Positions 3,151-31,171 of a DNA stretch of 64,000 nt are shown here, piece after piece. Under the pieces are notes generated by a model. The model had not been told where the DNA came from. It was given only the letters and a program-made list of their open reading frames with translations, and made no database searches. Source of the DNA: Kitasatospora sp. DSM 101779 (GTDB lineage Bacteria > Actinomycetota > Actinomycetes > Streptomycetales > Streptomycetaceae); NCBI RefSeq assembly GCF_025655475.1, contig NZ_JAHTIK010000001.1:8124606-8188605 (forward strand), given 5' to 3'. Every line of letters starts with the position of its first letter. The first letter of the stretch is position 1. Position numbers and translations under genes: made by a program.

Positions 3151-3153
3151 GTC

Positions 3154-4683
3154 CTACCGCACCTCCTGGTCACTGTCCGGGACCCTCGCGGTCCGCATCG
3201 TCGTCGGTCCCGTCCGCCGCCGGCCCGTGCCGGTGTCCCGGGTCGGCCGCTCGTACCGGCCGCGCGTCGCGGTGAACGGCCCGTCCCACAGCGTGCCGTC
3301 GGTCCGGTCGCGCGGATCCGGGTCGATCAGCACCACACCGATCACCGGGATGTCCTGGTCCGCGAGCTGCCGCGCCACGGTGTGCAGCCACGCGGTGCTG
3401 CCGTGCCCAGCACGCACCACGAGCACGGTCCGGGTGCCGAGGTACCGGAGCTGGGTCCACGTCGTACCGGGCGACACCGAGCCGACGCCGAGCCGACGCC
3501 CCTGGCCCGCCCCGGCCGTCGCACGCTCGCCGCCGACCACGGTCGGCTCTCCCGGCTGCGAGCCGCGCTTGGCGAACCGCGGGCCGGGCAGCTCGTCGAC
3601 GAGAGCCACCGGCCCCTCGTCCCCCAGTGCCCCGGCGAGATCCAGGGCGATCGCGCCGGTGCTGCGCGCGCAGCCCAGTTCCAGCAGCGACACCGCCTCG
3701 GCGGAACCGCGCACGGTGCGGGCCAGGGTCGTGGCGAGCCTCGCCCGTGCCGCCCGGGTCCGTCGGCCCTGCCACCGCCCGGCCGGCCGGCGGGGCACCC
3801 GGCGCAGCTCCGCGATGACCGGGGCGCCGAGGTTCGCCGCGATGTCCCGGCGCAGCACGGGGCGGTCCGCCACCACCGTGCCGACCGCGGCCACCGCCAG
3901 CCCGAGGACGAGCCCGAGGACGAGTCCGATCGCGGCGTCGGTGGCGGCGGTCCCGGTCAGGGACTGCCGCACCGGGCGCGGGGCGTCCACGATCTGCGTG
4001 GCGGCGACGAGCCCGGGCGTGCCGACCCGCGCCTCCGCCGCGCGCTGGCCGAAGTCGGTGATCCGCGCGGTGAGTTCGGCCCGGCTGGCGAAGAGCGACT
4101 CCAGGCTCGCCGACGCCTTCGGCCCGCTCTGCTGCGAACCGTCGCCGATCGTCCGGTTGACCTGGGCGAGTTCCTCCTGCAGGCGGTCCCGCTGGTCGAG
4201 CAGGGCCTTGGCCTGGGCGTCCGCGGCTTCCTGGATCCGTCGCACGTGGTCCGCGACGAACGCGTCGGCGAGCGCCTTGGCCCGGGCCACCGCCTCCCCC
4301 TCACTGTGACCCGTCACGGTGATCTGCAGCACGTTGTTGGTGAGGCCGATGCCCCCGTAGTCCTTCATGAGGTCCTCCGGTCTCTCCGAGGACCCGAGGG
4401 ACTGCAGGGCCCTGCCGGCGATCCCCGTGGTCTGCAGCAGGGCGACGTCGGTGCGGATCAGCGTTCCGGGGTCGTTCGGCTGGTCCGCCTGGTGCGCGAC
4501 CAGCACCTTGACCAGCGCGGTCGGCGGCGGCGGCCGCAGGACGGCCAGCGCAGCGCCGACCAGCAGCCCGAGCAGCGCCGTCGCGCACCAGAAACGGCGC
4601 CGCCTGCGCACTGCGACCACCAGCGCCTGCAGGTCCACCAGCGGCGCGGCGGCCGACGACTCCGATGTCGTACTCGTCGTCAC
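3154..4683 (-). CDS. Wzz/chain-length-determinant family membrane protein
   Basis: The 509-residue protein has the Wzz/PCP layout. A cytoplasmic N-terminus leads to TM1 at about residues 34-55 (FWCATALLGLLVGAALAVL). An extracytoplasmic region of ~190 residues with coiled-coil character follows (residues ~135-195, many Gln/Glu/Leu heptads), then TM2 near 235-262 (AAIGLVLGLVLGLAVAAVG). The C-terminal ~240 residues are cytosolic and resemble a BY-kinase-like fold in spacing, but I see no Walker A lysine, so kinase activity is unlikely. It probably controls chain length or export of the polymer. Its start overlaps the stop of the second Wzz-like gene by 4 bases. Confidence 0.85.
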   Translation of the reverse strand: MTTSTTSESSAAAPLVDLQALVVAVRRRRRFWCATALLGLLVGAALAVLRPPPPTALVKVLVAHQADQPNDPGTLIRTDVALLQTTGIAGRALQSLGSSERPEDLMKDYGGIGLTNNVLQITVTGHSEGEAVARAKALADAFVADHVRRIQEAADAQAKALLDQRDRLQEELAQVNRTIGDGSQQSGPKASASLESLFASRAELTARITDFGQRAAEARVGTPGLVAATQIVDAPRPVRQSLTGTAATDAAIGLVLGLVLGLAVAAVGTVVADRPVLRRDIAANLGAPVIAELRRVPRRPAGRWQGRRTRAARARLATTLARTVRGSAEAVSLLELGCARSTGAIALDLAGALGDEGPVALVDELPGPRFAKRGSQPGEPTVVGGERATAGAGQGRRLGVGSVSPGTTWTQLRYLGTRTVLVVRAGHGSTAWLHTVARQLADQDIPVIGVVLIDPDPRDRTDGTLWDGPFTATRGRYERPTRDTGTGRRRTGPTTMRTARVPDSDQEVR

Positions 4684-6077
4684 CCCGCGGCGCTCCTCGT
4701 GTCGCCGCCGGCCGCGAGCACCGGCGTGGCGCCGTCCGGATCACGGCCGGCGGACCGTCCCGGACGGGCCCGGACCACGTCGGCGACGACGGTGCCGACG
4801 ATCTCGTGCCTGGCGTCCGCACACGCCTCCGCGATACCGGCGAGCTCCGCCGCCGTCCAGCAGCCCGCACTGAGCACGACCAGCGCGCCGGACTCGTCGT
4901 CGCGGTCCGGCACCAGCGGCCGGGACACCGAGACCCCCACCACCCGCAGCTCGGGGTATCCCCTGCTCGAAGAGCTTGGGGAAGGACCGCCCTCCGCCTC
5001 GGCGACGAGCTGCCCGGCTGCCCGGCCGGCCATCTCGTCCCCGTCCGGGACGATGACCAACAGCGGCCGGGGCTCCGGCAGCCGGTCCCGGAGGCGGTCG
5101 CAGACCCGCCGGAAGCGGAGCTGCCGACCGGCCTCGTCGCCGGGAGCGTGCCGGGTCGGCAGGTCCCACCGGACGTCGGTGCCCAGCAGCCGGCGGATCA
5201 GGGCCCGCGGGCCACGGCCCTCCGGCCGGTGGGCGGACCGTTCACCCGGCACATCGACGGTGCCGAGGAGCACCGAGCCCAGCGCCGCGGCGATCTCCGG
5301 TTCGGTGCGCAGTCGGCGGCTCATCCGTGCGGCGGTGAGATGGCCGACGACCCCGAGCACGAGGAACAGCGCCGCCCCGCCCGCGACGAGCTGCATCCTC
5401 GTCGGCGGTGCCTCCCCCGTCGGTCGGGCCGCAGGCCCCATGACGACCAGGTTGACCGTCCTGGTGGCGGCCGGGTCGACCTGGTCCAGCTTCTTGACGG
5501 CGTCCTGCAGCGCGGTGCGCAGCTTCACGAGCTCCGTGCGGGTCTGCACGCTCTCCACGCTCTGCCCCGAGCCGGCCGCGTCGGCCAGGTCGGTGATGCG
5601 GCGGCCGGCCTGCTCCACCAACTGCCGCAGTGCCTCGGGCTGCGCCGCTTCGGCGGCGGTGCCGTCGCCCGAGTACCGCGCGGCGAACGTGACGAACTCC
5701 TGGGCCACCTGATCGGAGAGCTGTTGCGCGCGCTCCGGGGTGTCGGCCGTACCCGAGATCTTGATGATGTTCCCGTCCGCGGCCGTGGCGCTCACCCGGT
5801 CCCGCAGCTCGTCGCCGCCGGCCCCGGACCAGGCGAGCGCGGCGGCCACGCGGTCGAGCACCACCGAACTGGTGGCAATCTGCGTCTGGGTCGTCAACTC
5901 GCGCTCCTGCCACGCCCCCGGCAGCAGGACCGAGGCCGACGTCGTGTAGCGCGGCGGAAACAGCAGGGAACTGCCGTAGCCGACGAACGCTCCCAGCACC
6001 GCGAGGACCGCGAGGAGCCGCCAGCGCCGACGGAAGATCTGACCGACCGTCACCAGGCGTATCGCTTCGTCGCTCAA
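4680..6077 (-). CDS. Second Wzz-like polysaccharide co-polymerase
   Basis: The 465-residue protein starts with a short cytoplasmic segment and TM1 at about residues 20-40 (LLAVLAVLGAFVGYGSSLLF). A periplasm-type domain and a second TM near residue 240 follow (LVAGGAALFLVLGVVGHL). The first domain begins TTSASVLLPG, typical of Wzz beginnings. The cytosolic tail (~250-465) has a degenerate P-loop-ATPase look (RPLLVIVPDGDE, GALVVLSAGCW) with no Walker lysine. It overlaps the GT gene upstream and the other Wzz-like gene downstream by 4 bases each. Two adjacent Wzz-like proteins suggest a hetero-oligomeric co-polymerase, which is inference. Confidence 0.83.
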   Translation of the reverse strand: MSDEAIRLVTVGQIFRRRWRLLAVLAVLGAFVGYGSSLLFPPRYTTSASVLLPGAWQERELTTQTQIATSSVVLDRVAAALAWSGAGGDELRDRVSATAADGNIIKISGTADTPERAQQLSDQVAQEFVTFAARYSGDGTAAEAAQPEALRQLVEQAGRRITDLADAAGSGQSVESVQTRTELVKLRTALQDAVKKLDQVDPAATRTVNLVVMGPAARPTGEAPPTRMQLVAGGAALFLVLGVVGHLTAARMSRRLRTEPEIAAALGSVLLGTVDVPGERSAHRPEGRGPRALIRRLLGTDVRWDLPTRHAPGDEAGRQLRFRRVCDRLRDRLPEPRPLLVIVPDGDEMAGRAAGQLVAEAEGGPSPSSSSRGYPELRVVGVSVSRPLVPDRDDESGALVVLSAGCWTAAELAGIAEACADARHEIVGTVVADVVRARPGRSAGRDPDGATPVLAAGGDTRSAAG

Positions 6078-7339
6078 CGGCGCGGCCTCTTCCCGGCCCG
6101 GCCCCGGCCGCCCGCCGACACCGGGGCGTGGTCACGGCAGGCAGCGGCGTAGGCGGCGAGCAGCGAGGCCTGCGAGTTCCGCCAGGCGAGCGGCCCGTTG
6201 ATCCGCTCCTGGCCGGCCTTGCCCATCAAGACCCGCTTCTCCGGATCGTCCAGCAGCAGTGCGACGAGTTCGGCGAATCGGGCCTCGTCGTTGGCGGGCG
6301 CGTAGACGGCGGCGTCACCGGCGGAGACCCGCGCCTCGCGGAGGTCGAAGGAGACGATCGGCCGGCCCATCACCATGTACTCCAGGACCTTGTTCATGGT
6401 CGACACGTCGTTGAGCGGATTGCGCGGGTCGGGGGAGAGGCACACGTCCGCGGTGGACAGGTACCGCACCAGGTCGGCGTCCGGAACGCGCCCGGTGAAC
6501 TCCACTTGCTCCGAGAGCCCGAGCCGCCGGGACAGCTCCACCATCGCGTCGAAGGTGTCGCCACCGCCGACGAACACCGCGTGCCAGTCGGTCCGCCCGA
6601 ACTCGTCGCGAAGCTTCGCGAGGGCCCGCAGGGCGTAGTCGACGCCGTCCTGAGGCCCCATCACGCCGAGGTAGCACAGCAGATGGGGCTTGCCGCGCTT
6701 CAGCTCCGGCTCGGGCGGCACCGGCCGGAACCGCCCGGTGTCGGGCGCGCTGCGCACCACGAAGACGTCGTCCGGGCGCCGGCCGCCACGGCGCAGTGCG
6801 ACGTCCCGGTAGCTCTCGTTCGTGGCGAGCACGACGTCCGCGGCCCGGTAGGTCAGCCGTTCCAGCGCGCACACGCCGCGGTAGAGCAGATCCTCACCGC
6901 GGTCGAACCGGGAGAGGTACAGCTCGGGTACCAGGTCGTGCTGGTCGAATACGAACCGGGCGCCGCGCCGCTTCAACCACAGGGCCGGCAGGAACAGCAG
7001 GTCGGGCGGATTGCAGGCGTGGACCACGTCCACCGGGCCGACCCTGCGGGCCAGCCGGGCCGTGTGCCACAACGCGGATCCGTACTCCCGCAGGTAGCCG
7101 GCCGGCCCTCCGGTGGCCGCGCGCAACGGGTACCGGTGGATCCGCACCCCGTCGATCACCGCCTCCGACTCGGTGTCCCGCTTGCTGCCCCGCGGGCAGA
7201 TGACGTCCACCGTCCAGCCCGCGTCGCGAAGCGTCGTGCACTCCTGCCACACCCGTCGGTCGAACGGCACCGACAGGTTCTCCACCAGGATCAGCGCACG
7301 ACGGCCCCGCCCGTCGCCGCCCGTTGTGTCACCAGGCAA
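6074..7339 (-). CDS. Glycosyltransferase family 4
   Basis: The 421-residue protein has a GT-B fold. The N-terminal Rossmann half carries ALILVENLSVPFDRRVW and DVVHACNPPDLLFLPA. The donor-binding half carries LCYLGVMGPQDGVDYALRA, VFVGGGD and the late MNKVLEYMVMGRPIVSFD acid region of retaining GT4 enzymes. Members of this subgroup use a sugar nucleotide to extend a lipid-linked oligosaccharide on the cytoplasmic face. The start is a TTG inside the last 11 bases of the upstream dehydrogenase gene. No other in-frame start precedes the conserved ALILVEN strand, so translation is probably coupled. Donor and acceptor sugars cannot be told from sequence. Confidence 0.9.
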   Translation of the reverse strand: MPGDTTGGDGRGRRALILVENLSVPFDRRVWQECTTLRDAGWTVDVICPRGSKRDTESEAVIDGVRIHRYPLRAATGGPAGYLREYGSALWHTARLARRVGPVDVVHACNPPDLLFLPALWLKRRGARFVFDQHDLVPELYLSRFDRGEDLLYRGVCALERLTYRAADVVLATNESYRDVALRRGGRRPDDVFVVRSAPDTGRFRPVPPEPELKRGKPHLLCYLGVMGPQDGVDYALRALAKLRDEFGRTDWHAVFVGGGDTFDAMVELSRRLGLSEQVEFTGRVPDADLVRYLSTADVCLSPDPRNPLNDVSTMNKVLEYMVMGRPIVSFDLREARVSAGDAAVYAPANDEARFAELVALLLDDPEKRVLMGKAGQERINGPLAWRNSQASLLAAYAAACRDHAPVSAGGRGRAGKRPRR

Positions 7340-8645
7340 GGCCCGCGTACCCCGGCTCGGTCCGGCGCGCCTCGGCGTCGGGAAGGCGGACGAGGTCGAC
7401 GATCACCGGGCTGCCACCGTGGGGCAACGCCGACAGCACGGCCGGGTCGCTGGTCCCCACCACGCACACCTCGGCATGGTCGAGCACCTCGTCGACGGAC
7501 TCCGCGAGCAGCTGCGCGAGGTGCGGCAGCCGGGTCTCGATGTACTCGCGGTTCGCGCCGAGCAGCCGGGAGAGGCTCACGTTGGGGTCGTGGATCCGCA
7601 GGTCGTAGCCCTTGCCGAAGAGCCTCTCCGCCAGTTCGACGAGCGGGCTCTCGCGGAGGTCGTCGGTGCCCGGCTTGAAGGACAGGCCGAACAGGCCCAC
7701 CCGACGCTTGCCGGTGCGCTCGACCAGCTCCACCGCGCGCTGCAGATGGTCGGAGTTGGAGGGCAGCACATGGGAGAGGATGGGCACCGAGACGTTGGCC
7801 CGCCGCGCCGCGTGGACCAGGCCCCGCAGGTCCTTGGGCAGGCAGGAGCCACCGAAGGCGAAGCCGGGCCGCAGGTAGGCGGGGCTGATGTTCAGCTTGC
7901 GGTCGGCCAGGAACACGTCGATCACCTGGTGCGAGTCCACCCCGAGCGCCCGGCACACCGCGCCCAGCTCGTTCGCGAAGCCGATCTTGAGCCCGTGGAA
8001 GGCGTTGTCCGCGTACTTGATCGCCTCGGCCGTCGGGACCGGCACCCGGAACACCTCGCCGGGCAGTCCGTCGTACAGCGCCGCGACGACGTCGCCGCTC
8101 GCCGGGTCGAGCTCGCCGATGACGGTCTTGGGCGGGTCGAAGAAGTCCCGCACGCTCGTGCCCTCGCGCAGGAACTCAGGGTTGACCGCGACCCCGAAGT
8201 CCACCCCGGCCGTGCCGCCGACGTACTTCTCCAGGATCGGTACCAGCAGGTCCAGGCAGGTGCCCGGGAGCATGGTGCTGCGGAACACGACGGTCTGCCG
8301 CCCACCCCGCTCGGCCACCGCGGCACCGATCTGCTCGGTGACCCGCTCCAGGTAGGTGGTGCACAGGCTGCCGTCGGGCTCCGACGGCGTGCCCACGCAG
8401 ACCAGCGACACCTCACTGCCCATGATCGCCTCGCGGACGTCGCCGGTGGCGCGCAACGCTCCGGCCCGCACGACCTCGGCGATCAGCTCGCCGATCCGCT
8501 CCTCGACCACCGGGGCCCTGCCCTCGTTGACCAGGTCGACCTTCACCTGGTTCACGTCCACCCCGATGACCTCGTGACCCATCCTGGCCAGGCACGCGGC
8601 CGACACACAGCCCACGTAGCCCAGCCCCAGGACACTGACCCTCAT
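7329..8645 (-). CDS. GDP-mannose 6-dehydrogenase-like (AlgD/UDP-Glc DH family)
   Basis: The 438-residue enzyme has all three domains of the family. The NAD fold is MRVSVLGLGYVGCVSAACLA. The central helix carries the catalytic lysine region (AEAIKYADNAFHGLKIGFA), and the nucleophilic Cys lies in FAFGGSCLPKD. A C-terminal nucleotide-binding half has GLFGLSFKPGTDDLRESPLV. Phrases such as SLVCVGTPSEPDGSL, VVFRSTMLPGTCLDLL and VDFGVAVNPEFLREGTS read closer to GDP-mannose dehydrogenase than to typical Ugd, so GDP-mannuronate is the favoured product. UDP-glucuronate remains possible. A good SD (GAGGGGAGGAACG) precedes the ATG. It supplies the uronic acid of the locus 1 polymer. Confidence 0.88.
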   Translation of the reverse strand: MRVSVLGLGYVGCVSAACLARMGHEVIGVDVNQVKVDLVNEGRAPVVEERIGELIAEVVRAGALRATGDVREAIMGSEVSLVCVGTPSEPDGSLCTTYLERVTEQIGAAVAERGGRQTVVFRSTMLPGTCLDLLVPILEKYVGGTAGVDFGVAVNPEFLREGTSVRDFFDPPKTVIGELDPASGDVVAALYDGLPGEVFRVPVPTAEAIKYADNAFHGLKIGFANELGAVCRALGVDSHQVIDVFLADRKLNISPAYLRPGFAFGGSCLPKDLRGLVHAARRANVSVPILSHVLPSNSDHLQRAVELVERTGKRRVGLFGLSFKPGTDDLRESPLVELAERLFGKGYDLRIHDPNVSLSRLLGANREYIETRLPHLAQLLAESVDEVLDHAEVCVVGTSDPAVLSALPHGGSPVIVDLVRLPDAEARRTEPGYAGLAW

Positions 8646-8718
8646 GACCCGTTCCTCCCCTCAAGCAGGCCCTTACGGCCGGCCGGCCGCGCGCCGATCG
8701 GACGACGCCCCCCACGCA

Positions 8719-10248
8719 TCAGTAGGCCCCCTGTCCCTGGAGCACCGCACGCAGCGTCTTCCACAAGATCACCGTGTCCAGGGCGAGCGACCAGTCCTCC
8801 ACGTACCGCAGGTCCAGCCGGACCGCCTCCTCCCACGGCAGGTCGCTGCGCCCGCTGATCTGCCACAGGCCCGTGAGCCCGGGCTTGACGAGCAGTCGCC
8901 GCCGGATGTCCGGGCCGTACGCGGCGGACTCCTCCGGCAGCGGAGGCCGCGGACCGACGAGCGACATCGAGCCGGTGAGCACGTTGAGCAGCTGCGGGAG
9001 CTCGTCGATCGAGTACCGGCGAAGCACTCCTCCCACCCGGGTCACGCGTGGATCCCGGCGGAGCTTGAACAGCAGGCCGGCGCCCTCGTTGCGGTCGGCC
9101 AGCTCGGCACGTGCCCTGTCGGCCCCGGCGACCATGGTGCGGAACTTGACCAGGGTGAACTGGCGGCCGTCCTTGCCGACTCTGTGCTGTCGGTAGAAGG
9201 CCCCGCCCCGACTGTCCACCAGCACGAGCAGCCCGACGACCACCATCAGCGGCGCGAACAGGACCAGCAGGACCGCGGCACCCAGCCGGTCGACGACCTC
9301 CTTGACCACCCGGCGGCCCCCGGTGAAGGTCGGCATGCTGACCCGCAGCATCGGGATCCCGAGCACCGCGTCGACGTGCAGCCGCGGGCCGGCCACCTCC
9401 ATCAGCACGGGGGCCACGACCATCTCGGCATCGCCGCCCTCGAGGTTCCAGGCCAGGCGCTGCAGCCGGTCCGGTGACCAGTACGAATCCGGTGTGACCG
9501 CAACGACCCGGTAGCCGTCGCGGCGGACGTGGTTGGCGACGTCCGTCAGCCGGCCGACGACCGGCACGCCGTCCAACCGGCCACCCTCGTAGCCGAGACC
9601 GTGCGGCGTACACACCGCCTCGACCCGCCAGCCGATGTGCGGGAACTTGCGGGTCCGGGCGATCAGGTCGCGCACGGTGGCCGGGCTCCCGGCGGCGAGC
9701 ACCGGGCGCAGGCACCGGCCCTCGTTCCGCTGCTTGTGCAGCCACAGGCGCAGCAGATACCGCTCGGTCATGGTGACGAGCGTGATCGCCGGGATTGCGA
9801 CGAAGATCCAGAGCTTGATGTTGTGCGAGGTGAGGGCGATCCCGCCGAGCGCCAGTACGACGGCCGCCGTGAACAGCGAGCGTCCGAGCCGCCGGAATTC
9901 CTCGGCGCCCTGACCGAGCACGGCCGCAGCCCACGACCGGGTCGTCGCGAGCGCTGCCAGCACCAACAGCTCGGTGCCGAAGGCGAGAATTCCCCATTTC
10001 TCGTGCCAGTTGGCCGCGTCCCGAATCCCGAAGAAGCGGCCTATCGCCGCCACCACGAAGGCGGTGGCCACGATATCGCTGATGATGACGGCAAGGCGGT
10101 ACCGCTGCTCCCAGTCACTCTCGGGCCGGCTGATCCTCCCGTTCGTCCGACGTCCCCGCGCCGGTGGAAACGGACTGATCAATTCTCCTTGCCCCTGCTT
10201 GACGGCCCCTTCCAGGTCGGCAGTGGGTTCGACGTGTTCGCTCCACAC
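8719..10248 (-). CDS. Polyprenyl glycosylphosphotransferase (initiating sugar transferase)
   Basis: The GTG at 10248 gives 509 residues and has a strong SD (GGGGGGAGG). The frame is open further upstream, but there it reads through a duplicated hairpin leader. Residues ~40-150 hold four hydrophobic helices and a central region resembles a CoA-binding/Rossmann fold (CLRPVLAAGSPATVRDLI). The C-terminal ~200 residues are the bacterial sugar transferase domain, with a re-entrant helix (LLVLFAPLMVVVGLLVLV) and FTLVKFRTM, LRRYSIDELPQLLNVL, MSLVGPRPPLP and KPGLTGLWQISGRS. It transfers a hexose-1-phosphate to undecaprenyl phosphate and starts the locus 1 repeat unit. It is the first gene of the operon reading leftward. 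Confidence 0.92.
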   Translation of the reverse strand: MWSEHVEPTADLEGAVKQGQGELISPFPPARGRRTNGRISRPESDWEQRYRLAVIISDIVATAFVVAAIGRFFGIRDAANWHEKWGILAFGTELLVLAALATTRSWAAAVLGQGAEEFRRLGRSLFTAAVVLALGGIALTSHNIKLWIFVAIPAITLVTMTERYLLRLWLHKQRNEGRCLRPVLAAGSPATVRDLIARTRKFPHIGWRVEAVCTPHGLGYEGGRLDGVPVVGRLTDVANHVRRDGYRVVAVTPDSYWSPDRLQRLAWNLEGGDAEMVVAPVLMEVAGPRLHVDAVLGIPMLRVSMPTFTGGRRVVKEVVDRLGAAVLLVLFAPLMVVVGLLVLVDSRGGAFYRQHRVGKDGRQFTLVKFRTMVAGADRARAELADRNEGAGLLFKLRRDPRVTRVGGVLRRYSIDELPQLLNVLTGSMSLVGPRPPLPEESAAYGPDIRRRLLVKPGLTGLWQISGRSDLPWEEAVRLDLRYVEDWSLALDTVILWKTLRAVLQGQGAY

Positions 10249-10315
10249 GGTTCCTCCCCCCGGGAGGCTTGCGCCTCCCGCACGGTTCCTCCCCTCGGGA
10301 GGCCCCCGCCTCCCG
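10249..10315 (-). promoter_or_regulatory. Tandem hairpin plus Shine-Dalgarno leader, two 35-base copies
   Basis: Immediately upstream of the GTG at 10248 lie two direct copies of a unit. On the minus strand each is an 8-bp stem (CGGGAGGC/GCCTCCCG, 4-base loop), then a GGAGGAACC SD, then a GTG. The stems are at 10261-10280 and 10296-10315. Only the inner GTG is in frame with the sugar transferase; the outer GTG is out of frame. The G-rich stem abuts the SD and could regulate initiation. It may instead be a simple slippage duplication. Confidence 0.7.
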
Positions 10316-10752
10316 TTCCGTGCTGTTCCCACCTCTCAATAGGCCCCGCCCCCCGCATGGCAAACCGGCTACCGCATTGCTTCGTGAACATCCCACCCGG
10401 ACGCCGGCAGGCTCGTATGTCCCGCCGGAGTCCCGAGGTGCATGGGAAACCGTCGTCGCCGGACCTATGGATCGTTAGTGCGCATCGCGTCCAACTGTGC
10501 GAAGCGACAATCAATCTAGAGCATCGGGACGCCCGGCGGGGGCGATGTGTGAAACGCGTGCTCGATATTTGAACTTGATCTACGGAACGGTTGTCGCGTG
10601 GGTTTATTGAGAAATAGGACATGTATTGTGACGTGTGATGCGGGAGTTAAGGACCCGGTCCGAGGCGGCGCAGCCGGAGGTCGGTCGCACCTCACGCGGC
10701 CAGCGCCTGGCGGAGCATGGCCCGGGTTTCTGCCAGCCCTTCCGGATCTGCC

Positions 10753-16976: not shown

Positions 16977-17644
16977 CTATGGGGGCCCGGTGTACTCGCG
17001 GTTGCCGGTCAGGCACTCGATCAGCAGGAGGCCCAGGGCGTAGACGTCGGCTGCCGCCAGGGCACCCTGGCCGCGGATCTGTTCCGGGGCCAGGTAGGCC
17101 GGGGTGCCGATGACCAGGCCGGTGCCGGTGAGTGCCTCGTCACCGGGGGCGGCTGCTTCGTCGAGGAGGCGGGCGGCGCCGAAGTCGGCCAGCCTGGCGC
17201 GGCCGTCGCTGCCGACCAGGACATTGGAGGGTTTGACGTCCCGATGGACGACCCGTGGGAGTGCACGTGCGCCAGCGCCGTGGCCAGTTCGCGTCCGAGC
17301 CGACGGACTCGGTCGGCGTGCATCGGCGCGGCCCGCAGCAGTGCGGCCAGTGCGGGGCCCCGCAGCAGTTCCAGGGCGAGGTAGGGCCGGTCCGCCACGA
17401 CCCCGTAGGCGTAGACCTCGATCAGGCCCGGGTGGCGGAGCCGCGCCAGCAGTCGTGCCTCCGTGCCGAAGCGCCGGGCGGTGTCCGCACTCGCGCCGGG
17501 CCGGAAGACCTTGAGGGCCACCTCGCGGTTCAACCGCTCGTCCACAGCGCGCAGGACATCGGCCCCGCCACCCCGGCCCAACACCGAACACACTCGGTAT
17601 CGCTGCGCGAACAGTGTCGTCGCGGTAGTGCTTCCGGCGGTCAC
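16977..17644 (-). pseudogene. Ser/Thr protein kinase, frameshifted and C-terminally truncated
   Basis: From GTG 17644 the kinase N-lobe is clear: FAQRYRVCSVLGRGGGADVL is the glycine loop, NREVALKVF holds the ATP lysine, and then RRFGTEARLLARLRHPGL. Near 17255 the reading frame shifts by one base. The catalytic loop VVHRDVKPSNVLV, LADFGAARL (DFG), GTPAYLAPEQ and DVYALGLLLIECLTG continue in the neighbouring frame. The C-lobe ends abruptly after GNREYTG with a stop at 16977, losing the last helices and any sensor domain. Two independent lesions make a sequencing error an unlikely full explanation. Confidence 0.85.
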
Positions 17645-17873
17645 GGTCGTGCCGGTCTCCCGATGCCGGAGGTCACTGGCTGTCTGCGCACCGATGGGAT
17701 GCGTGCGCACCGCCGCCTACCCGCGATTCCCGGGAACACGCTCCTCCGTGCGACGAAACCCTTCGGTCCGGAGGAGCGTGCGTGTCGGTCGGTTGCCGGT
17801 GCCCGTTTCGGATCGCCGCAGACCGCGCTGCCCGGCTCCCCGCCCACCGGCCCGGAGGGCCGCCGCTCCGTGG

Positions 17874-20800
17874 TCAGGGAAGCTCCCGGTGGCGGACTTG
17901 AGCAGGGCGGCGGTGATCGCGTCGCCAGTGGCGATGCCCGGGCTGGTGGCGCGCACCAGGGGAGAGGCGGAGCGGCCGGCCGCCGCGTCCGCGGCCGCGA
18001 TCAGGCCCATGCAGGTGGCGAGGGCGGGGACCCGCGGGTTCGGCGTGCTCGGTGGGCCAGACGGCGATCGGGTTGCCCAGCCAGCGGGTGCCGGAGGGGA
18101 CCTCCTCGCCGCGCATGACGAGTGAGGCCGGACCAATCGTGGTGCCCGGTCCGACGGTGGTACCCGGCAGAACGATCGAGTGCGGACCGGCGGTGGCGCC
18201 GGCCTGGAGCCGGACGGCGTCCAGACGCATGACCCGGTCGTGGAACAGGTGGGTCTGCAGCACCGTACCGCGGTTGACGTTCGCACCCGCCTCCACGGTG
18301 ACCAGGTCGCTCTCGGGAAGCCAGTACGTCTCGCACCACACGCCGCGGCCGATGTTGGCACCGAGGCTGCGCAGCCAGAGGTTGAGGTACGGGGTGCCGA
18401 GCAAGAGCTGGCCGCCCCAGGGTACGGCGAGCTCCTCGACGAAGGTGTCGTAGAGCTCGTTTCGCCACACGAAGCTGGACCAGAGCGGGTGTTCGGCGGC
18501 CTTGAAGCGGCCGACCAGTAGCCACTTCGCGAGGGTGGTGACCAGGCAGGCGGCGAGCGAGGCACCGGCCATCACCAGCCCGGCGCCGGCCAGCGTGGGG
18601 GCGAGGCCGTCCTGGTCGCGCAGGGTCTGGAGCGCGCCGAAGACGAGGTCGGCGAGCACGGCGGTGATGACCAGCGGGATGAAGCGGCAGAGCTCCACGG
18701 CGGCCCGGGCGAATACCAGCCGCCGGGGAGGGTCGTAGGTGCGGCTCTCCTCGACGGTGTCCGCCACCCGGGGCAGGGCGATGCCGGGGCGGCCCAGCCA
18801 GGAGGAGCCGGGCTCGCTGTGCGCGGGGGCGTCGGAGAGGACGCCGACCAGCGCGTCGTCGGGGAGGGTGCGGCCGGGGCCGACGATGCCGGAGTTCCCG
18901 ACGAAGGAGCGCCGCCCGACCCGCGCGGGTGCGATGCGCAGCCAACCGCCGCGCACCTCGAACGGCGCGATCAGCGTGTCGTCCGCGAGGAACGCTCCGT
19001 CGTCCACCCGTATCAGCCCGGGCAGCGCCAGCACCGTGGAGGCCTCGACGCGGCGGCCCACCCTGGCGCCGAGCAGCCGCAGCCAGACGGGCGTTAACAG
19101 GCTTGCGTAGAACGGGAAGAGCGAGCGGCGCGCGGTGTCGGACAGTCGGCTGACGGCCCATACGCACCAGGCCACCCTGCCGTGTGCCGGGTGGAAGCCC
19201 GGGCGGATCGGACGGCTGAGGACGCGGATCAGCAGGGCCACCAGCGTGGCGTAGCAGGTGAGCGTGATGGCGATCAACAGCACGGTGGAGGGCAGGAGTT
19301 GGATCAGCGCGGTGCCGAGGGTGGGGTCGGTGTCGGTCAGCGGGTAGAGGATGGCGAACGCGGGGAGGGAGGAGAGTACGGGCAGCAGGCCGAGTACCAG
19401 TAGCCCCGCACCGTAGGCGAGGTCCCAGCGGCGGTAGTGGTGGCGGTGCGGCGCGGGCCAGTCGGGGCGCGGTTCGGTGCTGGGGCGGGCCGGGGAGCCG
19501 TGCCAGTGCGCGCTGGCGGGCACGGTGCCGAGGACGCAGCTGCCGGGGGCGACGTCGGCGGCGGCACCGACGCGCGCGCCGGGCATCAGGGTGGACCGGG
19601 TGCCGACCCGGGCGCCCTCGCCGATTTCTATCGCGCCGAGGCGCAGCACGTCACCGTCCAACCACCAGCCGGCGAGGTCGACTTCGGGTTCGACGCTGCA
19701 GTCCGCGCCGAGCCGGGCGAGGCCCGTCACCGGCGGGAGAGTGTGCAGGTCGACGCCCTTGCCGACCTTGCAGCCGAGCGCCCGTGCGTAGTGCCGGGCC
19801 CAGGGGGTGCCGGTCAGGCCGACTACGCCGAAGGCAGTGGCCATGCGCTCGGCCGCCCACAGGCGCAGGTGCACGGCGCCGCCGCGCGGGTAGCTGCCGG
19901 GTCTGAGGCCGGCGGTGAGCAGCCGGGCGGCGGTGCTGCCGAGCAGCAGGCGACCGGGGGCGCTGGAGAGCAGCAGCAGGCCGGTGATGATCAGCCACCA
20001 GGGGGTGTGCGGGGTCCGCCGCAGGGTGCCGCCGGTCATGTTGTCGAGCGCGGCGAGGGTGAGCACCCAGCGCAGCCCGACGACGGTGTACAGCGCGGCC
20101 AGCACGAGCGTCTGCCAGAAACCCGCGCGCAGCGGGGTGCGGTGCACCTGGCGGTGCTCGCGCGGCCCGGTGGCGAACTCGTCGAGCCGGGCGGCGAGAT
20201 CGAGCAGGGTGGGGTGGGCGTAGAGGTCCGCGACGGAGACGCCGGGGTAGCGGGCGCGCAGCGCGGAGACCAGTTTCGCAGCGGTCAGGCTGGTGCCGCC
20301 GAGGGCGAAGAAGTCCCCGTCGGCGCCGGCCGGCAGGCCGAGCAGGGCTTCCCACTGCTCGGCGAGCCAGCCGGCGGTGCCGGTGCCGGCGGCGCGCGGG
20401 CCGGTGCCCGGCTGCGGGCCGGTGGTGAGCGGCCAGGGCAGGGCGGCCCGGTCGACCTTGCCGGAGGTGCGGGTGGGCAGCTCGTCCAGCACGGCCAGGA
20501 CGGGGACCAGCGACTGCGGCAGCCGTTCCAGCAGGGTGGCGCGGGCCGCGACGAGGTCGAGCTCGGTAGCGGCCTGCGGCACGAGGTAGCCGACCAGTAG
20601 CTGGCCGCCGGCCGGGGCGGTCCGCACGGCCGCGGCGGCGGCCCGGACGCCCGGCAGCGCCTGGAGCGCGGCGTCGACCTCGCCGAGCTCGATCCGCTGG
20701 CCGGCCAGCTTGACCTGCTCGTCGGCGCGGCCGACGAAGATCAGGCCTTCGGGTTCGTTGCGCACCAGGTCGCCGCTGCGGTAGACGCGTTCGGAGTGCA

Positions 20801-21953
20801 GGTGCGGATGGGCGGTGAACTTCTCGGCGTCCTTGGCCGCATCTAAGTAGCGCGCGGTGCCGACGCCGCCGATCAGTAGCTCGCCGGTCTCGTGCCAGCC
20901 GACCGGTCGGCCCGCGGCGTCCACGACGGCGATCTCCCAGCCGTCCAGCGGGGTGCCGATCCGCACCGGCTGCCCGGGAAGCAGCTGGGCGGCGGTGGCC
21001 ACCACGGTCGTCTCGGTGGGCCCGTACGTGTTCCAGAACTCCCGGTGCGGGGCGGCCAGGCGTTCGACCAGGTCGGCCGGGCAGGCCTCGCCGCCGACGA
21101 TCACCAGCCGGACGGCGTCCAGGCACTCCTCGGGCCAGAGCGCGAGGAGGGTGGGGACGGTGGAGATGACGGTGATCCCGCGTTCCACCAGCCAGGGGCC
21201 GAGGTCGGTGCCGGCCTTCACCAGGGAGCGGGGCGCGGGGACGAGGCAGGCGCCGTGCCGCCAGGCCAGCCACATCTCCTCGCAGGAGGCGTCGAAGGCG
21301 ACGGACAGACCGGCCAGGACCCGGTCGCCGGGGCCGAGAGGGCGCTCGCGCAGGAAGAGCCGGGCCTCGGCGTCGACGAAGGCGGCGGCGTTGCGGTGGG
21401 TGACGGCGACGCCCTTGGGACGGCCGGTGGTGCCGGAGGTGAAGATGATCCAGGCGTCGTCGGCCGGGGTCGGCGGGGCCGGGAGGGGGCCCGGCACGGC
21501 GCCGGAGGCCGGCCGCGTGCCGGGGGCGAGCTGCCCGTCCGCCCCGACCACGGCGCTCACCTGCGCGTCCTGCCAGATCAGTGCAGCGCGCTCGTCCGGG
21601 TCGTCGGCGTCCACCGGTACGTACGCGGCCCCGACACGCAGCGCGGCCAGGATGGCGATGTAGAGGTCGGGGGTGCCGGAGGGCGCCCGGATGCCGACCC
21701 GGTCGGCCGGCCCGATGCCGTGGCCGGTCAGCCGCTCGGCGAACTCGTCGACGGCACGCAGCAGCGCGCGGTAGCCGAGCACCGTGCCACCGGCGTCCAG
21801 CGCCGGCGCGTCCGGATGGGCGTCGGCGGTGGCGGAGATGATGTCGAACAGGCTGCGGGCCGCCGGTGCCGCGGCCACCGGCCAACCGACGCCGGGGCCC
21901 GGCGAGGGTCGGCTCAGCGTGTACACACCCGCCGGGTTCTCGCGTGTTTCCAT
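17874..21953 (-). CDS. Pls-like membrane NRPS (poly-amino-acid synthetase)
   Basis: 1359 residues, close to the 1319 of epsilon-poly-L-lysine synthase, with the same order of parts. An adenylation domain (~30-520) carries IIFTSGTTGRPKG, NTYGPTETT, YRSGD and TSGKVDR. A carrier domain has its Ser in FFALGGTSL. Six TM helices then flank three tandem condensation-like/hexapeptide-rich domains (TIGR02353-type): TM pairs near 620-670, 870-930 and 1120-1180. Aligned by hand to GrsA, the specificity positions read D-A-E-S-I-G-T-V-V plus Lys in SGK, like published lysine codes. The acidic E239 equivalent favours a basic side chain. Predicted role: ATP-dependent polymerisation of lysine or a similar diamino acid at the membrane. 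SD GAGGAAG precedes the ATG. The last ~65 residues are Arg/Gly/His-rich and unlike the family. Confidence 0.9.
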   Translation of the reverse strand: METRENPAGVYTLSRPSPGPGVGWPVAAAPAARSLFDIISATADAHPDAPALDAGGTVLGYRALLRAVDEFAERLTGHGIGPADRVGIRAPSGTPDLYIAILAALRVGAAYVPVDADDPDERAALIWQDAQVSAVVGADGQLAPGTRPASGAVPGPLPAPPTPADDAWIIFTSGTTGRPKGVAVTHRNAAAFVDAEARLFLRERPLGPGDRVLAGLSVAFDASCEEMWLAWRHGACLVPAPRSLVKAGTDLGPWLVERGITVISTVPTLLALWPEECLDAVRLVIVGGEACPADLVERLAAPHREFWNTYGPTETTVVATAAQLLPGQPVRIGTPLDGWEIAVVDAAGRPVGWHETGELLIGGVGTARYLDAAKDAEKFTAHPHLHSERVYRSGDLVRNEPEGLIFVGRADEQVKLAGQRIELGEVDAALQALPGVRAAAAAVRTAPAGGQLLVGYLVPQAATELDLVAARATLLERLPQSLVPVLAVLDELPTRTSGKVDRAALPWPLTTGPQPGTGPRAAGTGTAGWLAEQWEALLGLPAGADGDFFALGGTSLTAAKLVSALRARYPGVSVADLYAHPTLLDLAARLDEFATGPREHRQVHRTPLRAGFWQTLVLAALYTVVGLRWVLTLAALDNMTGGTLRRTPHTPWWLIITGLLLLSSAPGRLLLGSTAARLLTAGLRPGSYPRGGAVHLRLWAAERMATAFGVVGLTGTPWARHYARALGCKVGKGVDLHTLPPVTGLARLGADCSVEPEVDLAGWWLDGDVLRLGAIEIGEGARVGTRSTLMPGARVGAAADVAPGSCVLGTVPASAHWHGSPARPSTEPRPDWPAPHRHHYRRWDLAYGAGLLVLGLLPVLSSLPAFAILYPLTDTDPTLGTALIQLLPSTVLLIAITLTCYATLVALLIRVLSRPIRPGFHPAHGRVAWCVWAVSRLSDTARRSLFPFYASLLTPVWLRLLGARVGRRVEASTVLALPGLIRVDDGAFLADDTLIAPFEVRGGWLRIAPARVGRRSFVGNSGIVGPGRTLPDDALVGVLSDAPAHSEPGSSWLGRPGIALPRVADTVEESRTYDPPRRLVFARAAVELCRFIPLVITAVLADLVFGALQTLRDQDGLAPTLAGAGLVMAGASLAACLVTTLAKWLLVGRFKAAEHPLWSSFVWRNELYDTFVEELAVPWGGQLLLGTPYLNLWLRSLGANIGRGVWCETYWLPESDLVTVEAGANVNRGTVLQTHLFHDRVMRLDAVRLQAGATAGPHSIVLPGTTVGPGTTIGPASLVMRGEEVPSGTRWLGNPIAVWPTEHAEPAGPRPRHLHGPDRGRGRGGRPLRLSPGARHQPGHRHWRRDHRRPAQVRHRELP

Positions 21954-22797
21954 CAGGTCTCTTCCTCGATTCCATGTACTGCCGAGTACGACGCGGACAG
22001 AGCTCTCCCCTGCACGGGAATGAGGGTGCGTGCCAGTGATTACGTTCCCATTCGCCCTGGCGCGCTCCAGTGGTGACTGGATGATGGGCAGGCGAGTTCA
22101 AAGGAAATTCTCATCCGCAGTCTCGAAAGTGCCGTGCGAGGGTTTCGGCCGTGCGCGACGTCGGGCCGAATCCGCAATGGACGGCCACCAAAGAATGAGA
22201 CTACTGCGCTGCGGGGTGGACTACCGGCGCGGGAATCCGAATGGGTGTACGCATTTCTTGTGCGGGTTCAGTGCGTTGGACGGCTCCGGCCGTGCGCGCG
22301 CGGGGGGCCGGGTGGAGCTCGCGATAAAGATTCGGCAAGGCGTGCCGCCGGTAGGGTGAATTCGCGTTCGTCCGCTCGGCGGAACGCCGCCGAGCAGGGC
22401 GTGGGCTGTGTGGGCGAAGGGATGTTCGACCGTTTGGCGCCGGGCGCGTAATGAAGGATGTCAGAGGCGTTCCGGCGGCGCTCCGGCATGCGGGACGCCG
22501 AGGGTCGGAGCGTGCGCCGGTTTGCGCAAGGAGACAGCGATGCTGACATTCGTGAGGTGCTGCCGGCCCGCCACCTGCCGTCTTACTGTCCCAGTCGAAG
22601 CCCTCCAAAAGCTCGGCGGGGATAGGGGATAGGGGTAGGGGATTGGGGGCAGGGGGGCAGCACAAGGCGCTCTGTGAAATTCCCTAGTGCGGTGACCGGG
22701 AAGGTTCACCGGTTGTGGCTGGGGTGTTAGTGCTCGGCCCGGGTCGGACGTCTTGGTCAACGAGAAGTCGGGAGGGGTGGTGGCGGAGCTGGTCAGG
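21954..22797. other. Upstream region of the Pls-like gene, no gene recognised
   Basis: About 840 bases contain no convincing ORF. The segment next to the synthetase start (21954-22350) is somewhat less GC-rich than its surroundings and probably carries its promoter. A dense G-tract motif lies at 22618-22657. IS630-like debris begins at about 22798. Confidence 0.5.
22618..22657 (+). other. G-quadruplex motif (six G-tracts)
   Basis: Within 40 bases the plus strand has six runs of four to six G separated by only 2-3 bases. The tracts are 22618-22621, 22625-22628, 22632-22635, 22638-22641, 22645-22649 and 22652-22657. Short loops and at least four tetrads predict a very stable parallel quadruplex. 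It lies ~670 bases upstream of the Pls-like gene and 140 bases before transposase debris. Confidence 0.75.
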
Positions 22798-27740: not shown

Positions 27741-27847
27741 GGATCTGGTCAAGGGCAACTCTCCTCAAATGGCTGGTGTTTGCGCAAAGCTGACCGGTCA
27801 TCTGGAACCGAAATCGGGACCGAATCTTCTACTCACCAGGGATGCTG

Positions 27848-30800
27848 ATGACCCTCGAATCCCCCGGCTCCATACCCACGGCCAGACGCGTAGGGCGCGT
27901 CGTGGCCGTGGCGGCTCTGGTGGCCGTCCTCGCGGCCACCGGCGCGGCGCCTGTCTTGGCGGCGGACGGGAACGGCGCTCCGAGCTCCGGCCCTGCCGTC
28001 AAGTCCGCCGATCAGAAGCTGGGTTCGGCCGATGCCGAGCTCCTGCAGGAGGCCAAGGCCAAGGGTGACGCGAATGTCACCGTCATGGTCGCCACGGCCC
28101 CCGGCCAGACCAAGCAGGTCGCCGACCAGCTCGACGCCGTCCCCGGCGCCTCGGTGGGCCAGGTCTACGACAGCCTCGGTTACGTGCGCGCCACCCTGCC
28201 CACCGGCAAGGCGGAGGGTGCGCTGAAGGCGGCCGCCAAGCTGTCGTCCGTGCACGGCATCGACCTGCGGCACGAGATCCAGCTGCCGGACCCGCGCCCC
28301 GACGCCAAGGGCGGGTCGGGCTCGGTCCAGAAGACCGCCGTGGAGTCCTACCCCGCACCGGACAAGAACACTCCCGCGAGGAACCCGTACAACCCGTCCT
28401 TCGAGACGGGCGCGGTGGACTTCGTCGCGAGGAACCCGCAGGCCGACGGCCGCGGTGTGACCATCGGCATCCTGGACTCGGGCGTCGATGTGAGCCACCC
28501 GGCCCTGCAGAAGACCACCACCGGCGAGCGCAAGATCGTCGACTGGGTCACCGCGACCGACCCGATCGCCGACGGCGACGCCACCTGGCGCGCCCAGATC
28601 ACCCCGGTCACCACCTCCGGCGGTACCTTCACCGCGGGCGGCGCGACCTGGAAGGCGCCCGAGGGCAGCTACCAGTGGAGCCGCTTCAGCGAGTCGATCA
28701 CCGCCAACGGTGACATGAAGGGCGATGTCAACCGGGACGGGGACACCACCGACCGGTTCGGCATGCTCTACGACGCGGCCGCCGGGACCGTCCGCGTCGA
28801 CACCGACCAGGACAACGACTTCACGAACAACGAGCCGATGAGGCCGTACAAGGACGGCTACCAGATCGGCTGGTTCGGCACGGACAACCCGGCGACCGAC
28901 GTCGCCGAGCGCATCCCGTTCGTGATCCAGATCCGCAAGGACGTCCCGATGGACCCGCTCGGCGGGGACTGGATCGGCAAGAAGGCCGACTTCGTCAACA
29001 TCGGCATCATCGAGTCCGAGCACGGCACGCACGTCGCCGGCATCACCGCCGCCAACAGCCTCTTCGGCGGCAGGATGAACGGAGAGGCGCCGGGCGCGAA
29101 GATCGTCTCCTCGCGTGCCTGCACCTGGTCCGGCGGCTGCACCAACATCGCCCTGACCGAGGGCATGATCGACCTCGTCGTCAACCGCGGCGTGGACATC
29201 GTCAACATGTCCATCGGAGGCCTGCCGGCGCTGAACGACGGCAACAACGCCCGTGCGGAGCTCTACAGGAACCTCATCGACACCTACGGTGTCCAGCTCG
29301 TCATCTCGGCGGGCAACGAGGGCCCCGGTGTCAACACCATCGGCGACCCCGGCCTCGCGGACAAGGTCATCTCCGTGGGCGCGGCGGTCTCCAAGGAGAC
29401 CTGGGCCGCCAACTACGGCTCCGGCGTGACCAAGAAGTACAACATGTTCCCCTTCTCCTCGCGCGGCCCGCGTGAGGACGGCGGATTCACGCCGACCATC
29501 ACCGCCCCCGGCGCGGCCATCAACACCATCCAGACCTGGCTGCCCGGCGCGCCCGTGAAGGAGGCCGGTTACAGCCTCCCGGCCGGTTACGGCATGCTCC
29601 AGGGCACCTCGATGTCCTCGCCGCAGGCCGCGGGCGCCAGCGCCCTGCTGATCTCGGCCGCCAAGCAGCACGGGATCGCGCTGTCCCCGGCGAGCCTGCG
29701 CACCGCGCTCACCAGCACCGCGAAGAAGATCGACGATGTTCCGGCGCACGCCCAGGGCTCGGGTCTGGTCAACGTCCTCGGCGCGTGGGAGTCCATCCAA
29801 CACGGCGCGAAGTCCGACGAGTTCACCGTCAAGGCGCCGGTCGACACCGCGATCGACCAGTTCCTGAAGACCCCCGGCTTCGGCACCGGCCTCTACGACC
29901 GCGAAGGCGGCCTGAAGGCTGGCCAGAAGAAGGTCTACGACGTCGTCGTCACGCGCACCACCGGCGTCGAGCACGGCACCCGCACCAAGCTGAGCTGGCG
30001 CAACAACGACGGCACGTTCAAGATCATCGGAGGCTCCGACTCCGTCAGGCTGCCGCTGAACAAGCCCGTCACCATCAAGGTCGAGGCCAAGCCGAGGACG
30101 GCCGGCGTGCACAGCGGCATCCTGCAGCTGGACGACGAGACCACCGAGGGCATCGACAAGCAGATCCTGACCACGGTCATCGCCTCCACCCCGCTGGCGG
30201 CCCCGGCCTACACCTTCTCGGACACCTCGTCCGTGCAGCGCAACAGCCACAAGTCGTATTTCGTCACCGTGCCGCAGGGCGCGAAGACCCTCGAGGTCGC
30301 CCTCGGCGGTCTCGCCGCGGGCAGCCAGACACGCTTCATCTCGATCCACCCGTACGGTGTGGGCATCGAGGACAGCGCGACCACCCAGTGCTACCCGAAC
30401 TACGACAACCCGGCGAACCAGTGCCGCCCGGACCTGCGGTCGTACGCCGACCCGCAGCCGGGCGTCTGGGAGGTCGAGGTCGAGTCGCGCCGCACCTCGC
30501 CGCTCCTCGACAACCCGTTCAAGCTGAACGTCTCCCTGCTCGGCGCGGCCTTCGACCCCGCGGTCAAGGTCCTGCCCGAGGCGAAACTGGGCACCCCGGC
30601 CCCGGTCCAGTGGACCGTCAAGAACGACGGTGCGGCCATCTCCGGCGGCAAGCTGAAGGGCGGCCCGCTCGGCTCCGCGAAGGTCGCCAGGCCGACCATC
30701 GCCAGCGGTGAGACCCAGACCACCGAGGTCACGATCGGCGAAGGCGTCTCCCGCCTCGACATCGCGATCGGCAAGGTCTCCGACACCGCCGCCGACCTCG

Positions 30801-31171
30801 ACCTCGACATCTACAAGGACGGCGTCAAGGTGGGATCCTCCGCCGACGGCGACTCCGAAGAGGCCGTGAGCCTGGTCAACCCGGCCGCGGGCACCTACCA
30901 GATCAAGGTGTTCGGCTACGCGGTCCCCTCCGGCTCCACCACCTACGACTACCGCGACGTGTACTTCTCGGCCGCCCTGGGCTCCGTCCAGGTCGACGAG
31001 GCCACCGCGGTGAACCTCGCCAACGGCGCCTCCACGGCGGTCTCGGCGAACGTCCTGGTCAGCGCCGCGGCCCCCGAGGGCCGACAGTTCTTCGGCCAAG
31101 TCCAGCTGCTCAACGCCCGCGGCACCGCCGCCGGCACCGGCAGCGTGCAGATCGACAAGGTCCTCCCGTAG
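27848..31171 (+). CDS. Large secreted subtilisin-like serine protease (S8 family)
   Basis: About 1107 residues with a Sec signal peptide (RVVAVAALVAVLAATGAAPVLA, shown in part). An I9-like propeptide (VTVMVATAPGQTKQVADQLD) precedes a split S8 catalytic domain. The triad is Asp in GILDSGVD (~206), His in HGTHVAGI (~393) and Ser in GTSMSSPQAAG (~588). A ~180-residue insert between Asp and His is typical of tripeptidyl-peptidase/TPP-like subtilases. Beta-sandwich domains fill the C-terminal ~450 residues. ATGs at 27842 and 27848 compete; the latter is better spaced from AGGG. No neighbour suggests a specific substrate; secretion and protein degradation are the safe reading. Confidence 0.93.
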   Translation: MTLESPGSIPTARRVGRVVAVAALVAVLAATGAAPVLAADGNGAPSSGPAVKSADQKLGSADAELLQEAKAKGDANVTVMVATAPGQTKQVADQLDAVPGASVGQVYDSLGYVRATLPTGKAEGALKAAAKLSSVHGIDLRHEIQLPDPRPDAKGGSGSVQKTAVESYPAPDKNTPARNPYNPSFETGAVDFVARNPQADGRGVTIGILDSGVDVSHPALQKTTTGERKIVDWVTATDPIADGDATWRAQITPVTTSGGTFTAGGATWKAPEGSYQWSRFSESITANGDMKGDVNRDGDTTDRFGMLYDAAAGTVRVDTDQDNDFTNNEPMRPYKDGYQIGWFGTDNPATDVAERIPFVIQIRKDVPMDPLGGDWIGKKADFVNIGIIESEHGTHVAGITAANSLFGGRMNGEAPGAKIVSSRACTWSGGCTNIALTEGMIDLVVNRGVDIVNMSIGGLPALNDGNNARAELYRNLIDTYGVQLVISAGNEGPGVNTIGDPGLADKVISVGAAVSKETWAANYGSGVTKKYNMFPFSSRGPREDGGFTPTITAPGAAINTIQTWLPGAPVKEAGYSLPAGYGMLQGTSMSSPQAAGASALLISAAKQHGIALSPASLRTALTSTAKKIDDVPAHAQGSGLVNVLGAWESIQHGAKSDEFTVKAPVDTAIDQFLKTPGFGTGLYDREGGLKAGQKKVYDVVVTRTTGVEHGTRTKLSWRNNDGTFKIIGGSDSVRLPLNKPVTIKVEAKPRTAGVHSGILQLDDETTEGIDKQILTTVIASTPLAAPAYTFSDTSSVQRNSHKSYFVTVPQGAKTLEVALGGLAAGSQTRFISIHPYGVGIEDSATTQCYPNYDNPANQCRPDLRSYADPQPGVWEVEVESRRTSPLLDNPFKLNVSLLGAAFDPAVKVLPEAKLGTPAPVQWTVKNDGAAISGGKLKGGPLGSAKVARPTIASGETQTTEVTIGEGVSRLDIAIGKVSDTAADLDLDIYKDGVKVGSSADGDSEEAVSLVNPAAGTYQIKVFGYAVPSGSTTYDYRDVYFSAALGSVQVDEATAVNLANGASTAVSANVLVSAAAPEGRQFFGQVQLLNARGTAAGTGSVQIDKVLP

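What the first reader, a model, noticed from the sequence alone, without database searches (positions are those of the whole stretch)
17874..21953. Pls-like synthetase predicted to make a cationic homo-poly-amino acid
The A-T-(TM pair and C-like domain) x3 layout is that of epsilon-poly-L-lysine synthase, and manual alignment to GrsA gives the code D-A-E-S-I-G-T-V-V-K, like published lysine codes. Polymers of this class are antimicrobial, and few synthetases have been tied to products. Orphan position, with no degrading hydrolase beside it, makes the product and its control unknown.
Basis: partly seen in the sequence, partly recalled or inferred. Interest (0 to 1): 0.88.

Follow-up and report, generated by a model that had tools for sequence, protein, structure and literature searches.

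The report
Second, orphan polylysine synthetase gene
This looks like an intact gene for the enzyme that makes the natural food preservative epsilon-polylysine; it is the second such gene in this actinobacterium, and it belongs to a branch that lacks the usual neighbouring polymer-cutting enzyme.

Summary
The 1359-aa ORF at 17874-21953(-) is a complete Pls/PosA-family synthetase (TIGR02353, 709 bits against a cut-off of 423) with A, T, six TM segments and three beta-helix parts. Its nine pocket positions read DAESIGTVV, identical to the crystallised epsilon-poly-L-lysine synthetase 7wew; 29 of 30 pocket-shell positions match. The best-supported product is therefore epsilon-poly-L-lysine, a known polymer.

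What is new is the context. The genome holds two pls genes. Pls1 is followed by a Pld-like M1 hydrolase; the window's (Pls2) is not. Across 70 genomes of the genus, 67 of 68 Pls1-scoring matches have that hydrolase 42-353 bp away, against 0 of 35 Pls2 matches within 9 kb. Pls2 is one clade in the full-length tree but not in the A-domain tree. At the position of W646, whose mutation shortens the polymer in S. albulus, the window and its nearest relative have arginine, so a short-chain product is a testable guess. Whether Pls2 is already characterised, as the short-chain "plsII" of Kitasatospora aureofaciens, could not be settled. I rate it a new member of a known kind.

The parts
17874..21953 (-). 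pls2: Pls/PosA-family synthetase ORF (1359 aa)
20424..21857 (-). adenylation domain, residues 33-510; code D221 A222 E225 S264 I285 G287 T309 V317 V318 K499
   Evidence: 66.4% identical to 7wew over 500 columns
20184..20369 (-). thiolation (carrier) domain, residues 529-590, with the LGGTSL serine motif at 551
19938..20108 (-). TM pair 1 (616-634 and 654-672) and its linker
20016..20018 (-). codon 646 (Arg) in the TM1-TM2 linker, aligned with chain-length residue W646 of S. albulus Pls
   Evidence: function of W646 from PMC8506220 section 8
19404..19937 (-). C1 part, beta-helix (about residues 673-850)
   Evidence: borders approximate
19227..19403 (-). TM pair 2 (851-869 and 891-909)
18684..19226 (-). 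C2 part (about residues 910-1090)
   Evidence: borders approximate
18540..18683 (-). TM pair 3 (1091-1109 and 1120-1138)
18054..18539 (-). C3 part (about residues 1139-1300), probably close to the true functional end
   Evidence: borders approximate
17877..18038 (-). Arg/His/Pro-rich tail (residues 1306-1359), probable read-through; the coding-like frame here is +1
   Evidence: (GC by position 0.93/0.67/0.72 over the last 180 bases)
21959..21967 (-). Shine-Dalgarno-like GAGGAAGAG
   Evidence: read by eye
21954..22471 (-). upstream stretch shared with the nearest relative (G030/L115), unlike the S. albulus pls promoter

Best explanation
The gene encodes an intact membrane-bound epsilon-poly-L-lysine synthetase, the second one in this Kitasatospora genome. 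The A domain activates L-lysine, the T domain carries it, and the TM/beta-helix part adds it repeatedly to free lysine chains to give a cationic isopeptide. It belongs to a lineage (Pls2) that stands alone, without the M1 hydrolase (PldII-like) that nearly all other pls genes examined here have next to them. Protection, if needed, probably comes in trans from the hydrolase next to Pls1. Shown by sequence: family, layout, pocket identity, residue conservation, absence of the neighbour. Inferred from known relatives: substrate, polymer and mechanism. Guess only: a shorter chain because of Arg646, and protection in trans.
For: TIGR02353 far over its cut-off. Best PDB match is 7wew, 'Epsilon-poly-L-lysine synthase'. 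Nine pocket positions identical to 7wew; the same code in all 80 rows of the 'actino' set and in 36 of 38 Pls2 rows (the other two, L134 and L135, unreadable in my alignment); 20 of 22 Kitasatospora Pls1 rows were cut before the first three positions and agree at the other six; the seven outgroup rows read DFECLS.. (six) or DMEHNGTVT (one). 29 of 30 pocket-shell positions match 7wew. Ala at position 2 goes with Lys, Met with Orn, Phe with Dap/Dab (PMC10522769 passages). Of 183 columns near-invariant outside Pls2, the window departs at 2, both in the A domain, and at none of 71 in the TM/C part. Hydrolase next to 67 of 68 Pls1 and 0 of 35 Pls2; one close Pld in the window's genome, next to Pls1, plus two at about 40% identity.
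Against: No product, transcript or protein evidence. The PMC8117764 authors saw no polymer from C. variabile despite a working gene, so possession is not production. The window's upstream region does not resemble the S. albulus pls promoter (score 24; maximum of 100 shuffles 31), and pls promoters are said to matter for expression. Two window-only A-domain changes, G83A and R419Q, sit at otherwise conserved columns. The C-terminal end looks rearranged.
Confidence: 0.85

Rival explanations
1. The enzyme polymerises another basic amino acid (ornithine, Dab, Dap, beta-lysine), as its distant relatives do.
For: Relatives with these products share the architecture (PMC10522769). Pls2 differs consistently from the other near relatives at 12 columns, seven of them in the A domain.
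Against: Code identical to 7wew and unlike the Orn (DMEHNGTVSK) and beta-lysine (DGESISVVNK) codes in print and the DFECLS-type code here. None of the 12 columns is one of the nine code positions.
Confidence: 0.06
2. Intact by sequence but silent or decaying in this strain: a mobile single-gene remnant in a chromosome arm. Not exclusive of the best explanation.
For: Only the gene with about 500 bp upstream is shared with the nearest relative. A probable transporter remnant and a kinase split over two frames follow it. It lies about 208 kb from the end of an 8.35-Mb contig. Promoter unlike S. albulus.
Against: No stop or frame break up to the tail; GC by codon position 0.76/0.56/0.93. All 71 near-invariant TM/C residues kept. 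The lineage is present in 32 of 70 genomes.
Confidence: 0.2
3. Pls2 is the already studied short-chain synthetase 'plsII' of Kitasatospora aureofaciens (AZL89021.1), so the lineage is not new at all. Not exclusive of the best explanation.
For: K. aureofaciens makes short-chain epsilon-PL, and its plsII transfers that trait to S. albulus (PMC7188835 section 3; PMC8506220 section 8). Same genus; Pls2 is common in it.
Against: Nothing decisive: I had no way to fetch AZL89021.1, and 31 of 32 Pls2 genomes also carry a Pls1, so either gene could be it.
Confidence: 0.4

Closest known systems
epsilon-poly-L-lysine synthetase Pls of Streptomyces albulus (A-domain structure 7wew)
   Same: Domain layout, all nine code positions, 29 of 30 pocket-shell positions
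   Different: 66.4% A-domain identity; no adjacent pldII; no detectable promoter similarity; R for W646
Pls1 of the same genome (G000:C1:483650-485701, locus L009)
   Same: Same code and family
   Different: About 59% identical, with an M1 match starting 57 bp after it; W at 646 in 22 of 22 Kitasatospora Pls1 rows
PosA (delta-poly-L-ornithine synthetase) and PDAP/PDAB synthetases
   Same: A-T-TM/beta-helix architecture (PMC10522769, PMC4668381)
   Different: Pocket position 2 is Met or Phe; rows here with such codes are 35-39% identical to the window or 7wew
Kitasatospora aureofaciens PlsII (short-chain epsilon-PL)
   Same: Same genus, same family, experimentally confirmed (PMC8117764 methods)
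   Different: Not compared here; sequence not at hand

Membership tests
Pls/PosA family NRPS (TIGR02353) | C-terminal domain over the curated cut-off | tested here: met
   709.3 bits against 423.1
Pls/PosA family NRPS (TIGR02353) | Single A and T domain, no C or TE domain, three TM pairs with three beta-helix parts | tested here: met
   no C or TE family in the Pfam scan at E 0.001
epsilon-poly-L-lysine synthetase | Pocket code of the known lysine enzyme | tested here: met
   9 of 9 code positions equal to 7wew, plus K499
epsilon-poly-L-lysine synthetase | Falls with confirmed epsilon-PL synthetases, apart from Orn/Dap/Dab types | tested here: met
   Outgroup rows split off with full support (seven, four). 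The order of Pls2, S. albulus type and Pls1 is not resolved; the only confirmed enzyme present was S. albulus (7wew)
epsilon-poly-L-lysine synthetase | Adjacent PldII-type M1 peptidase (usual, not required) | tested here: not met
   0 of 35 Pls2 matches
epsilon-poly-L-lysine synthetase | Makes epsilon-poly-L-lysine | not testable with these tools
   needs expression and mass spectrometry

The most novel reading that the evidence does not exclude
Kitasatospora and some relatives carry a second epsilon-polylysine synthetase lineage that was cut loose from its hydrolase once, spreads as a single-gene cassette, and makes a polymer (in this strain a shortened one, through Arg646) with a role other than the hydrolase-guarded antimicrobial of Pls1.
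Probability: 0.25. Interest if true: 0.55.

Novelty: new member of a known kind. Interest (0 to 1): 0.38.

Why it matters
PldII is described as pivotal for self-protection in S. albulus (PMC9223678, passages), although knocking out both Pld enzymes was reported to change neither yield nor chain length (PMC8506220, passages). Nearly every pls gene outside Pls2 that I examined has such a neighbour (76 of 80, one of the four exceptions being a Pls2; 67 of 68). A widespread lineage that does without it lets one ask whether protection works in trans and what a second synthetase is for. The natural Arg646 variants in an otherwise intact enzyme offer a direct test of chain-length control. The polymer itself is known.

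Tried and rejected
A conserved partner gene for Pls2: none found. No window ORF within 8 kb either side had hits at 1e-8 in two or more of the Pls2 flanks (37 loci). The most widespread flank family occurs in 12 of 37 loci (window included, L011 left out), downstream.

Remnant of the M1 gene behind Pls2: none by tblastn at 1e-20 in any of 38 Pls2 loci. Loci L145, L140 and L141 hold only 387, 1271 and 2317 bases downstream.

Sister relation of Pls2 and the S. albulus type: supported in the quick full-length tree (SH-aLRT 98), not in the smaller A-domain tree, so not claimed. In that second tree Pls2 is not one clade (L002 falls apart from the other ten rows; 0 of 200 bootstrap trees unite them). 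Labels: Pls2 was assigned before the trees, from the bit-score group 635-712 plus L001, L002 and L011, which lacked M1. Five family matches in three genomes (G001, G041, G056; partial, 210-466 bits) were left unclassified and not counted. Dropped rows: L134, L135 and L146 from the tree (144 rows kept); these and L145; L093-L112 also because they are cut at the N end. The A-domain tree used 38 rows.

W646: in the 80 'actino' rows 63 have W, the rest F, V, A, N, D, Q or a gap, so Arg646 alone is weak evidence. Host conditions also change chain length (PMC8506220).

Papers: Hamano 2014 was not held; Hamano 2014 and Xu 2019 are cited only through other papers. PMC10522769: outline, sections 6, 8, 10, 11 and 13, and passages. 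PMC8117764: parts 1-3 of 4. PMC4668381: outline and section 5. PMC8506220: section 8 and passages. PMC7188835: section 3 and passages. PMC9205021, PMC9223678, PMC10012588: passages. All others: search listing only.
Full report
What is there. The ORF at 17874-21953 on the minus strand (1359 aa) is a complete single-module synthetase. Pfam finds an AMP-binding domain, a carrier domain and a hexapeptide repeat; NCBIfam names the C-terminal 683 residues 'Pls/PosA family non-ribosomal peptide synthetase' at 709 bits against a cut-off of 423. Hydropathy gives three TM pairs. A model of residues 600-1300 is confident (mean pLDDT 86.3, pTM 0.89), and its best structural matches are hexapeptide acyltransferases (three matches at E up to 0.001, TM-scores normalised by the whole model only 0.10-0.12 for these), in line with the published PosA model of left-handed beta-helices (PMC10522769 section 13). 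The 'C-like' parts thus look like acyltransferase folds, not NRPS condensation domains.

What it activates. The structure 7wew has the same nine residues and 29 of 30 shell positions (shell positions recalled, four of the usual 34 lying outside the fragment used). PMC10522769 reports Ala at position 2 for lysine enzymes, Met for ornithine, Phe for Dap/Dab, and a different code for the beta-lysine polymer enzyme. That paper names 7wew as the epsilon-PL synthetase A domain; that it is the S. albulus one is recalled. Epsilon-poly-L-lysine is therefore the expected product.

Is it intact. Of 183 columns that are at least 98% invariant in 89 family members outside Pls2, the window differs at two, both in the A domain (residues 83 and 354), and at none of the 71 in the TM/C part. 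The final stretch after about residue 1305 is odd: lengths after the GNP motif range from 21 to 68 residues among 34 Pls2 rows, the window (67) and L115 (68) being longest, and the third-position GC signal in the window's last 180 bases is in another frame. In the relative L115 that frame gives a weak, below-cut-off DMT transporter match (E 3e-5, 23.4 bits against 50); the window's own frame gives none, and Pfam finds nothing in either. I read it as pls joined to a transporter remnant, with modest confidence.

Two pls genes. The genome G000 carries a second, higher-scoring copy, Pls1, with an M1 peptidase match starting 57 bp after it. The window itself has none. The genus is Kitasatospora by inference: contig G053:C30 has the length (81,610) of the Kitasatospora sp. 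GP82 contig in L011. In 70 genomes of the genus, 69 have a family match. Two main score groups appear: 68 Pls1-type matches (in 67 genomes) and 35 Pls2-type matches (in 32 genomes, 31 of which also have Pls1); five matches score 542-554 and five partial ones were left unclassified. The close Pld-like gene lies 42-353 bp (match to match) from 67 of 68 Pls1 matches, and within 9 kb of 0 of 35 Pls2 matches (the listing of weaker M1 hits was cut off, but searched the fetched loci directly at 1e-20 and found none near Pls2). The one exception is G054:C38. In the wider actinobacterial set, 76 of 80 loci have M1 on the same strand within 700 bp downstream; the exceptions are L011 (a Pls2), L018 (contig end), L051, and L074 (3.4 kb away).

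Descent. All 35 Pls2 rows used form one side of a branch in the full-length tree (SH-aLRT 98, quick method). The order of Pls2, the S. albulus type and Pls1 differs between the full-length and the A-domain tree, and in the latter L002 leaves Pls2. One loss of the hydrolase is therefore likely but not proven. The nearest relative, L115 in G030, shares at blastn level only the gene, 518 bp upstream and 20 bp downstream at 93% identity, in the 8-kb flanks compared as far as L115 holds them, so the unit seems to move alone. Pls2 copies also lie on plasmids pKVP2 and pSCAT.

Chain length. In S. albulus, changes at W646 and L883 in the TM linkers shorten epsilon-PL, as reported in PMC8506220 section 8. 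L003, which has W646 and L883 at those numbers, served as ruler. Position 646 is Arg in the window, in L115 and in the more distant L141, and Trp in the other 31 of 34 Pls2 rows and in 22 of 22 Kitasatospora Pls1 rows; the L883 equivalent (L879) is kept. The linker is modelled with lower confidence (block pLDDT 65). A shorter product is a fair guess, no more. K. aureofaciens is a natural short-chain producer whose 'plsII' carries the trait; I could not learn to which lineage that protein belongs.

Control. The 500 bp upstream do not match the published S. albulus pls promoter (local score 24; 100 shuffles up to 31; L012 376 and L003 274 as positive controls). So regulation may well differ.

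Verdict. The new part is a hydrolase-free second lineage present in 32 of 70 genomes of the genus. In the listings of the paper searches no title or opening of an abstract speaks of a second or orphan Pls lineage in Kitasatospora, but I read only the papers named, and most subscription papers are not held.

Noticed in passing
window 17720-18076 (-): Frame +1 at the end of pls2 looks like the C-terminal half of a DMT-type transporter in the relative L115 (weak, below cut-off), broken in the window.
   Followed up: partly
window 16977-17710 (-): Ser/Thr protein kinase match split over two frames and cut short, just downstream of pls2; probably a pseudogene.
   Followed up: no
L147-L151 (five Kitasatospora genomes); also pSCAT 731610-733568: A third Pls-like paralogue scoring 542-554 bits, with code DFECLS.., i.e. 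Phe at position 2 as in Dap/Dab synthetases. For pSCAT only the score (552) was seen.
   Followed up: partly
L134 and L135 (G065:C1 at 97047 and 7596762): Two equally scoring Pls2 copies in opposite orientation near the two ends of one contig; their code region did not align in my extraction.
   Followed up: no
G054:C38:22502-24595: Pls1-scoring match with only an 875-aa open frame and no close hydrolase near it; the genome also has a Pls1 with one.
   Followed up: no
window 1216-10332: Probable exopolysaccharide cluster: asparagine-synthase-like protein, Wzz chain-length protein, sugar transferase (three proteins scanned).
   Followed up: no
window 27842-31171 (+): Large subtilase (S8) with a pre-peptidase C-terminal domain.
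   Followed up: no
control genome Corynebacterium glutamicum: Listed as carrying a TIGR02353 match over the cut-off; PMC8117764 used C. glutamicum as an expression host for a pls gene.
   Followed up: no
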